Assembly: GCA_947359465.1 (NCBI GenBank)
Contig: OX375877.1
Location: 57,323,359-57,387,358 of the forward strand
Direction: 5' to 3'
Length of the DNA stretch: 64,000 nucleotides
Source of the DNA: Metellina segmentata
Lineage: Eukaryota; Arthropoda; Arachnida; Araneae; Tetragnathidae
In this document: piece after piece, positions 49,401 to 52,400 of the stretch
Layout of the letters: each line of letters starts with the position of its first letter
Numbering within the stretch: position 1 is the stretch's first letter
Program-made: the position numbers and the translations under genes
The notes under the pieces: model-generated
What the model saw: the letters and a program-made list of their open reading frames with translations, nothing else
Told to the model about the DNA's origin: nothing
Databases searched by the model: none

Positions 49401-52400
49401 TGCTATAATTATCTTATGCGACCAGAGTATCCATTTATTATGATTCAGAAGTATATATTAGTAGTAGAAAAATAATTTTTCCATTTGAATAGCAGTGGTT
49501 AGACATTGCATTGTTATTTTTATTAAAAAAAATTGAAATACTCCAATGAGCGGCTTCATTTATGCTCGTGAGACTTTTTACAGATCTATAGGGTATTGCG
49601 TGCATTCAAGTTGACATCAAGTATTAAAAAATTTTCTTTAAATAAATTCTATATTCTCCTCGAAATAGTTCAAACTTCCATTTTAGTAAGGCAACAAAAC
49701 AAATAAAAATTAGGCAGTTTTGAATAGAATACTGTACATCAAAAACAATGGAAAGAAATTAACTCAAATATTGCACACATAGACACCGTTGACTCGATTG
49801 CGCACAAAATCTAAACACATTTTTTAATTCAATATATTTTTAATTTTTAATTAATTTGTTGTTAACAATTGGAAAATTATTACTTTGAAACTAAAATAAT
49901 ACGTACCTCTACTTTGTTTGGGTTATTCAATGATTAACTATAATAAAAGAGTTACTTTGACCTGATTATTATTTTGGAAGGTATAAGAGAAATACTGGAG
50001 CACTCATTTCACGTTAGGAACTTTGAATATCTATAAATTCTAATTCGTTATAGGGTTAACCAAATCGAATGCATTTCATATGAATTCCGATAATTCTGGT
50101 CCATAAAATATCATAATCTATAACCTAATATATGGGTTACCCTTTTTAACTTTCCAGCGGACGCGACGTCCACACCAACGTGAAAAGACGCGGGTATTTC
50201 TTAGATACATTATTTTAAAACGTAAAATTAGTTAAAAACTGTGTTAAAATTTAAAATATAAAGTGTGTTTTTATTGAATTTATGCTTTTTAATTAATACT
50301 AATACAGCTTATTTAAAGAAATGCTTTTCAAATTTCTATATTATCCATTTTTTTTAATATAATATTAATATTGCATATATAACTAGAATCAACTCTAGTG
50401 TATCTCCCACATACGTGCGACCGCTGGAAAGTTAAAAAAAATAAGAAGACGGACCCTTATGCCAATAAAATTAACATTTATTTATAGTTGACATTATTCC
50501 GCTGCATTATAACTCTATTATTTCAAGTCAAATTACACTTTTAGTTTGATTTTACGACTTCAGGGACTTAAATAACAAGAGGTGTTCGGATACTTTCTTT
50601 ACCTGCTGTAAAAATGATATTTTGTATCCATACTTCAACTTATTATTAAGAATGAATATTTATTGCGTTTTCTCTATATATCAATGCTTATATGCGATAA
50701 TTACTTGTTGAAATTCGTCCCCAACCGGCTGTTTTCAGTTCAACACCCTGTGAATAAGTTGCATCCGACCTAGGTAAGCCGACCAACCGGTATAGTGGTT
50801 AAGGTGTTAGCCTCTAGATCGGAAGGTTCCAGGTTCGAATCCGGGTCTGGGCATGGATGTTTGTAAACGTATGGTGTAGAGGCGGCTGGTGCACCTTAAA
50901 TCTGTCGTGGCCGAAAGTCCTCACGTTGGGTTGGCGTGGAAGTTTGGAGAGTGGGGTGCCAGCTCAGGTGTTGCTTCGTCATCTGACCGTGGTTCAAAAT
51001 TACGAGGTGTTGTCCTCGGATCTTTCCCTTAAGGGACTGATCCCGGACCGTCGTCAATAGCCCGTTGTGTTGCTCTAGTACGACGTTAACTAAAATTACC
51101 ATTACCGACCTAGGTAAGCATATTGGTCTGTATACATCGGGCATTCCCGTAGCAGGTACCTTCAATCTCAACAGAGCTAAATCGTTGTTGTGCGAAGTGG
51201 GTATGTCATACCCTTTGTGGTACCACACTGCTTCCGCATTGAATTTGTTGAACTTTGTCTCTCTTTCCGTAAATCGATGCCTGCCCAGAAATATGTGAAA
51301 AATCTTTGCATCCATTCCAGACCTGTAAAAAATGTATACATATTCTGTCTCTACTAATGCAAGCTGAACTTTGGAAGACTTTCCTGACAATAGCATAAAT
51401 TCAGAATATAGGAAACAGATAAAAGAGTCCGCTAATGGCGCGAGATAAAACTTCCTTTGTCACAGAACACAAAACAATGTTTAATTTTCATTAATGTTAT
51501 ATCTCTCTATATTTAAAAAAAGTTACCGCCGCCGCCGCCGCCGCCGCAGAATTGAAATTTTTGTTGTTTAGCTCCATTCTTAGACGGTTTCCCGAGAAAG
51601 TACTGATCGGAAAAATATGAAATTAACATGCTTTGTTCTTCATCGTATTCCCTGGATAATTATTAAGATTTTTTTCCGATGCGGCTATTAGTTTAGGTTT
51701 TATTAAGTGTTAAAGTTGAAGAAGTGAAATTTCTTCCGCGAGTGAGCAAAACACATTCAAAATTTCAGTCTTTAGTCGTGAGTTTTTTTTAAGAGTACCT
51801 CTCAACGTAAATTTTTGCAGCTCGTCGAGTTTTTTTTGAAATTTAAATGTGGTTCTTGATAATATTTTTTTGAAATTCGGAAAAAATCGGGACATTTTTG
51901 TTACTTTTTTTTAAAACTGCCGTATCTATATCTAATTACTATTAGTTTTTAATTTTTAAAATATCGCAGTATACCTCAGAATATACTCTTTCTTACGGTA
52001 CTATTATTTTTGAAATCGGTTAATAATTAAATTGGATGCGATCAAAAGTTCGTGATACAAAATTCGGAATCTTCGGATATTTTCGCTACGTTTTGTTAAA
52101 ACCGTTATGTGTACGGCAAAAACCATTATTTTTTAAATTTGAGAACATCACTGAATACACTACATTACACTCTTTCTTATGGTACAATTATTTTTCAAAT
52201 TGGTTAATAAACAAAATCGATGCAATTAAAAGTAGGTCATACAATTTTCGGAACTTTCAGATCGTAACTTCCGATACAAAACTAAAATGGTCATATCTAT
52301 ATAGTATTACTGTTAGTTTTTAATTTTAAAAATATTGCAGTATACCTCACAATGTACTCTTTCTTACGGTACAATTATTTTTAAAATTGGTTCATAAATA

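What the first reader, a model, noticed from the sequence alone, without database searches (positions are those of the whole stretch)
50705..51322. SINE in a protease-homologue exon whose target duplication creates its own splice sites: candidate newborn intron
Seen: a 325-bp antisense SINE with an exact 15-bp duplication splits exon C. On the coding strand each duplication copy contains CCTAG|GTCGG. Using the donor in the right copy (exon part ends at 51110) and the acceptor in the left copy (exon resumes at 50769) removes exactly 340 bp and restores [12 protein letters not shown] in frame. A good branch-site match (cttaac, 50798-50803 on the minus strand) lies about 28 nt upstream of the acceptor with no AG between. 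Known: duplication of an AGGT proto-splice site is a proposed route of intron birth. Inference: the SINE is tolerated because it is spliced. Weak points: the donor is gtcggt and the polypyrimidine tract is poor.
Basis: partly seen in the sequence, partly recalled or inferred. Interest (0 to 1): 0.88.

Follow-up and report, generated by a model that had tools for sequence, protein, structure and literature searches.

The report
Young SINE inside a pseudo-protease exon
A recent jumping-gene copy sits inside one of about fifty near-duplicate protease-like genes of what appears to be a spider; by chance it copied a splice-like motif on both sides, so it could be a newborn intron, but a broken, dispensable gene copy is the likelier reading until RNA is checked.

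Summary
Observation confirmed, one correction. All 19 paralogues read here have the uninterrupted exon, among them a sister 96-98% identical. The SINE shows no private change against seven other copies, so it is young. The five exons found are otherwise open; catalytic His and Ser are missing.

The newborn-intron inference is untested. Removing 340 nt and restoring frame follows automatically from any AGGT in the duplication, and ACCT lies at the left edge of 1,053 of 24,339 SINE ends. The duplicated sites score as weakly as some native sites of this gene, so splicing is possible; but the precise pair ranks 28 of 134 pairs, 6 of 13 in frame, and about 50 copies of the exon make a null allele easy to tolerate. 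Most likely: a young, perhaps polymorphic, disruptive insertion (0.68); precise newborn intron 0.2. Published HiFi reads, an alternate haplotype and announced RNA-seq could settle it.

The parts
50778..51104 (+). SINE, 327 bp (50778-50779 GC may belong to element or target), antisense to the gene
   Evidence: 39 other high-scoring copies at 99-100%; 0-1 differences to the 7 copies aligned; A/B-box-like tRNA head (consensus recalled)
50765..50779 (.). left copy of target duplication; coding-strand CCTAG|GTCGG, candidate acceptor, exon resumes at 50769
51105..51119 (.). right copy of target duplication; candidate donor, exon ends at 51110, GT at 51109-51108
50770..51109 (-). 340-nt candidate intron (precise excision)
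   Evidence: in frame and open; rank 28 of 134 pairs considered, 6 of 13 in-frame open pairs
50798..50810 (-). two branch-like motifs, CTAAC 50810-50806 and CTTAAC 50803-50798, from the antisense tRNA A-box-like region
   Evidence: the complement of CTTAAC is part of the 25-mer counted 24,339 times
51098..51099 (-). rival donor TAATG|GTAATT at the SINE tail (same six intron bases as the native exon C donor)
50746..50747 (-). first bases after a rival exonic acceptor, TTATTCACAG|GG; with donor 51099 it gives an in-frame product 4 codons shorter
50705..51322 (-). exon C (278 nt without the insertion); trypsin domain with the catalytic Asp region NNDLALL
63750..63829 (-). exon A: CGIPN...RIAGG...FPWI
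57847..57938 (-). exon B; TVASIF where the catalytic His (AAHC, recalled) is expected
47184..47317 (-). exon D
46293..46466 (-). exon E with GDNGAP in place of GDSGGP (recalled consensus), and stop codon

Best explanation
A recent retroposition of an abundant tRNA-like SINE, antisense, into exon C of one of about 50 loci that carry this trypsin-domain exon, in what is very probably the spider Metellina segmentata. Shown: the insertion, its duplication, its absence from the 19 paralogues read, its near-identity to other copies, and open reading frames in the five exons found. Inferred: most transcripts of this allele keep the SINE (stop at 50898, 71 codons after PICLP) or are spliced wrongly, so the allele is null or nearly so; it persists because the gene is one of many and because the insertion is too young to have been removed or fixed. 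The AGGT in the duplication is a coincidence of ordinary frequency, which leaves some chance of precise excision.
For: Redundancy: 50 loci with this exon, 48 of them in C5:42.8-57.7 Mb. Empty site in 19 of 19 paralogues read; sister exon 99% identical in protein. Youth: identical to L002 over 324 nt, one difference to each of L003-L008, none private to this copy, against 96.4-96.8% flank identity to the sister. Base rate: ACCT 0-11 nt before the element's 5' edge in 1,053 of 24,339, AGGT in 651 of 24,339. Retention gives a stop at 50898, skipping exon C a stop at the second codon, the SINE-tail donor joined to exon D a stop after 12 codons. 121 of 134 donor/acceptor pairs considered across the insertion are out of frame or stopped.
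Against: No second lesion was seen in exons A-E; exons before A were not found. Duplication-site scores overlap native ones: donor 1.04 against 6.91 (B), 0.43 (C), -0.56 (D); acceptor 1.05 against 4.27 (B), 4.31 (C), 0.58 (D), 3.66 (E) (exon A's sites not scored). Of 4,860 simulated antisense insertions into 18 paralogous exons only 16 gave a duplication pair scoring at least as well at both sites, so on this recalled scale the site is unusually favourable. Two branch-like motifs about 28-37 nt before the acceptor with no AG between.
Confidence: 0.68

Rival explanations
1. Newborn intron: the AG|GT in the two duplication copies are used as donor and acceptor, the antisense SINE supplies the branch site, and the mRNA is restored exactly.
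For: Exact AG|GT in both copies; branch-like CTAAC and CTTAAC; site scores within the range of this gene's native sites, reached by only 16 of 4,860 simulated antisense and 0 of 4,860 sense insertions; all five exons found are open. The route is a published model, and some Introner families co-opt both splice sites from the insertion site (passages of PMC3443670; of PMC9860276).
Against: Donor GTCGGT has C at +3; donor ranks 6 of 27 and acceptor 6 of 33 in the exon; the precise pair ranks 28 of 134, 6 of 13 in frame; a higher-scoring donor 10 nt away and acceptor 22 nt away; no RNA.
Confidence: 0.2
2. Imprecise newborn intron: donor in the SINE tail (51099) with the exonic acceptor before 50747 removes 352 nt and gives an in-frame protein four codons shorter in a variable loop.
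For: Best-scoring in-frame open pair, 5.43 against 2.08 for the precise pair; the donor hexamer GTAATT equals the native exon C donor; paralogues vary strongly just after PICLP.
Against: The acceptor is the second AG after the branch-like motifs; no RNA; scores rest on recalled frequencies.
Confidence: 0.1
3. Assembly or haplotype artefact: the SINE is not really in this gene.
For: The exon belongs to a large array of similar genes, where collapse or mis-joins can occur.
Against: Exact duplication and element boundaries; if the source is the published assembly, it is HiFi-based with QV 59.5 (PMC11519618, passages).
Confidence: 0.02

Closest known systems
Transposon-insertion model of intron gain at AGGT (reviewed in PMC3443670)
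   Same: Insertion into AGGT duplicates it, so that AG|GT flanks the element and exact excision keeps the coding sequence (passages)
   Different: Excision is not shown here; the element is a SINE; the review's table lists 35 unambiguous events in Oryza, Drosophila, Oikopleura and Zea
Introners that co-opt splice sites from the insertion site (PMC9860276)
   Same: Both splice sites would come from the insertion site, as in the Florenciella family of its Fig. 2E (passages)
   Different: The paper concludes that most Introners move by DNA transposition and counts 5 to more than 2,000 copies per family and genome; here one exonic copy of an abundant SINE with a 13-15 bp duplication
tRNA-derived SINEs
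   Same: A/B-box-like head, short direct repeats at insertion sites, thousands of near-identical ends
   Different: The mobilising LINE was not identified; the tail is a short CCATTA-type repeat, not poly-A
Spider trypsins with CUB/LDL domains (PMC5013568) and serine protease homologues (PF00089)
   Same: Trypsin-fold exons, RIAGG-like activation site; the paper's passages describe spider digestive trypsins
   Different: His and Ser of the triad absent; Pfam found no CUB or LDL exon on the minus strand of 57000-64000 or of the 8 kb beyond the window

Membership tests
Transposon-derived spliceosomal intron (AGGT / Introner-like) | Element absent from related genes at the same position | tested here: met
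   19 of 19 paralogues read are uninterrupted; the other 30 loci were not read
Transposon-derived spliceosomal intron (AGGT / Introner-like) | Possible splice sites lie in the duplicated target | tested here: met
   AG|GT in both copies
Transposon-derived spliceosomal intron (AGGT / Introner-like) | Splice signals strong enough relative to competitors | tested here: inconclusive
   Scores comparable to weak native sites, but rank 28 of 134 pairs (recalled frequencies)
Transposon-derived spliceosomal intron (AGGT / Introner-like) | Transcripts in which the element is removed | not testable with these tools
   No RNA data held
Transposon-derived spliceosomal intron (AGGT / Introner-like) | Further introns made by the same family (Introner property) | not tested
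   No gene annotation; only flank motifs were counted
tRNA-derived SINE | Multi-copy short element with target duplications | tested here: met
   24,339 exact 5' ends; flanks of L003, L004, L005 and L008, of 7 other copies printed, read by eye show direct repeats of 10-14 nt
tRNA-derived SINE | Internal Pol III promoter boxes / tRNA origin | tested here: inconclusive
   A/B-box-like strings seen in the sequence (consensus recalled); ARAGORN and Rfam at gathering scores found nothing in the window
S1 serine protease (trypsin fold) | Trypsin domain | tested here: met
   PF00089 E=1.4e-6 on exon C
Catalytically active S1 protease | His/Asp/Ser triad | tested here: not met
   Asp region kept; TVASIF in exon B and GDNGAP in exon E

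The most novel reading that the evidence does not exclude
A true newborn intron caught near birth: a SINE spliced out exactly through its own target duplication, with a branch site built into antisense copies of the family (complement of the tRNA A-box-like region), so that antisense copies landing on AGGT tend to be born as introns in this spider.
Probability: 0.15. Interest if true: 0.72.

Novelty: new member of a known kind. Interest (0 to 1): 0.36.

Why it matters
Introns caught near birth, with the empty site preserved in close paralogues and the donor element still nearly identical genome-wide, would let the AGGT model be tested directly. Here those parts are in place, and reads, an alternate haplotype and RNA-seq are published or announced for the matching species. 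If the answer is 'not spliced', it is an ordinary SINE knock-out in a redundant array.

Tried and rejected
Argiope bruennichi as the source, recalled from size and chromosome number, was rejected: GC 29.3%, longest scaffold 143.17 Mb, 4,643 SINEs against 35.4% GC in the window and 24,339 SINE ends. Notebook entry 1 still carries it; entry 2 corrects it. Damselflies were considered and dropped when Metellina segmentata matched chromosome by chromosome. That the sister gene is broken by its 210-bp tandem repeat (suggested by my entry 1) was rejected: its first copy is a complete exon and the extra partial copies follow its native donor. A homologue search with exon C found nothing. The dN/dS figures for the 3' part of exon C were out of frame for the window and are discarded; one search replaces them. 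Splice scores use frequencies recalled for Drosophila-like arthropods, not measured in this genome. In one search an AAHC string appeared in L020 away from the expected exon; not followed.

Full report
Where it is. The window is C5:57323359-57387358 of a genome of 1,665,100,106 bases in 173 contigs. The contig lengths seen (C1 141.10, C2 137.99, C3 132.53, C4 130.32, C5 130.21, C7 126.98, C10 117.07 Mb; [quoted passage not shown] that paper counts 178 scaffolds and a longer X1).

The observation. The two 15-nt copies CCGACCTAGGTAAGC start 340 nt apart. The 325 bases between them match 39 other places over (nearly) full length at 99-100%; with the window's own copy these are the 40 scored of 2,424 candidates, and five more rows are short pieces. 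Most other copies whose left flank I saw (the first 100 listed, five readable loci) have GC before CGACC, so the element is probably 327 bp and the duplication 13 bp. Of seven other copies aligned, L002 is identical over 324 nt and L003-L008 differ at one base each; five share T at position 54, where the window has the A of L002 and L004, so no change is private to the window's copy (the seven are the best-scoring copies). The sister paralogue is 96.4% (1,095 bp) and 96.8% (410 bp) identical in the flanks. If the insertion were as old as that gene duplication, about 5-6 private changes would be expected in 327 bp (my arithmetic, equal rates assumed); none is seen, so it is probably younger.

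Empty sites. A search with the 70-residue part of exon C gave 52 matches; two are partial repeat units in the sister, leaving 50 loci: 48 in C5:42.8-57.7 Mb, one at C5:122.2 Mb and one on C3. These are exon matches, not proven genes. Twenty came as DNA, the window among them; in the other 19 the exon runs on without insertion. At the site the coding strand reads AGGT in 4 of 19 (L013, L014, L015, L027), AGAT in 5 (the sister among them), AGGA in 2 and other letters in 8. So AGGT occurs in part of the family without any insertion, and probably stood here before it, since both copies have it.

The gene. Exons on the minus strand: A 63829-63750, B 57938-57847, C 51322-50705, D 47317-47184, E 46466 to the stop at 46295-46293. 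Boundaries were set by eye from splice-like motifs, frame and paralogue conservation; the phases fit, and apart from the SINE the five exons are open. Exons before A (start codon, signal peptide) were not found; the next array gene's last exon lies about 3.4 kb beyond the window. Exon B has TVASIF where the catalytic His is expected; the His is also absent in 13 of 13 paralogues in which exon B was found, of 19 searched. Exon E has GDNGAP. Across 20 sequences (190 pairs, near-duplicates included) of exon C mean dN is 0.153 and mean dS 0.154, dN exceeding dS in 88 pairs, with no stop in any sequence: amino acids change about as fast as silent sites although the frames stay open.

How telling is AGGT? 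Removing the element plus one duplication copy restores the old sequence whenever the same AG|GT is used in both copies, so the exact 340 and the restored frame add nothing to the AGGT itself. Of 24,339 exact SINE 5' ends, 1,053 (4.3%) have ACCT 0-11 nt upstream, the orientation at issue, and 651 (2.7%) have AGGT; the window's own ACCTAGGT fits both. These counts include tandem and duplicated copies visible in the lists and are a rough base rate. In silico insertion at every position of 18 paralogous exons gave AG|GT in the duplication for 280 of 4,860 (5.8%).

Splice potential. With recalled arthropod-like frequencies the duplication donor scores 1.04 (native: B 6.91, C 0.43, D -0.56) and the acceptor 1.05 (native: B 4.27, C 4.31, D 0.58, E 3.66); exon A's sites were not scored. 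In the simulation only 16 of 4,860 antisense and 0 of 4,860 sense insertions reached both scores; the thresholds were set from the observed case and the family shares the site, so this is descriptive only. Against precise excision: donor rank 6 of 27 and acceptor rank 6 of 33 in the interrupted exon; of 134 pairs considered (donor beyond base 150 and acceptor beyond base 400 of the exon, intron of at least 60 nt) the precise pair is 28th by summed score and sixth of the 13 that keep frame without a stop; the best in-frame pair uses the SINE tail's GTAATT (exon end 51100) and an exonic acceptor (exon from 50747), four codons shorter. The ranking ignores branch distance, exon definition and enhancers. 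The antisense element carries CTAAC and CTTAAC 33 and 26 nt from its edge; the second is the complement of the tRNA A-box-like region and lies in the 25-mer counted, so every counted copy has it.

Outcomes without excision. Retention adds 71 codons after PICLP and stops at 50898; skipping exon C gives a stop at the second codon; the SINE-tail donor spliced to exon D gives a stop after 12 codons. Each loses the C-terminal part of the domain.

Verdict. The structure is real and young. Whether it is an intron cannot be told from DNA. A redundant, fast-changing array makes loss of one copy easy, and new exonic SINE copies are usually disruptive (general knowledge), so I put 0.68 on a disruptive allele, 0.2 on precise and 0.1 on imprecise excision. 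The model itself is in print: AGGT duplication by transposons (PMC3443670, passages; 35 unambiguous transposon events in its table) and splice sites co-opted from the insertion site (PMC9860276, passages). The searches showed, in the titles and abstract starts listed, no paper on this insertion; one spider-genome paper that names Metellina segmentata (PMC11646306) was not opened. I saw only passages of PMC7788392, PMC9860276, PMC3443670, PMC5013568, PMC11519618 and PMC3151243, and listings for the rest.

Noticed in passing
L010:1005-1587 (C5, sister paralogue): A 210-bp unit holding the end of exon C and the start of the next intron is repeated 2.8 times with 100% matches; the extra copies lie after the exon's own donor, a shape related to the tandem-duplication route of intron gain.
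   Followed up: partly
window 51500-57735: About 6.2 kb separates exons B and C where the paralogues aligned there have a few hundred bases or less; it holds TA-type microsatellites, a transposase-like + frame at 53400-53861 (judged by eye) and a sub-threshold DUF4817 match on the minus strand.
   Followed up: partly
window 58038-62477: About 4.4 kb insertion beside exon B absent from the paralogues aligned there, with a DDE_Tnp_1_7 (piggyBac-type, recalled) transposase in two frames and ACCCTCT/AGAGGGT ends.
   Followed up: partly
exon C of 20 array members, C5 and C3: Mean dN about equal to mean dS (0.153, 0.154) with no stop codon, while the adjacent intron differs more (mean K 0.304 on an automatic alignment): suggests diversification or exon conversion.
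   Followed up: partly
genome-wide SINE edges: ACCT is more frequent than AGGT just upstream of the SINE (1,053 against 651 of 24,339), at least partly from tandem or duplicated copies with a shared flank.
   Followed up: no
L035:3179-3499: The next upstream array gene ends in an exon with ADSGGP, i.e. it keeps the catalytic Ser that the window gene lacks.
   Followed up: no
L013, L016-L018, L020, L022-L027, beyond exon B: An older relative of the same SINE (75-86% identical stretches) lies upstream of exon B in these paralogues.
   Followed up: no
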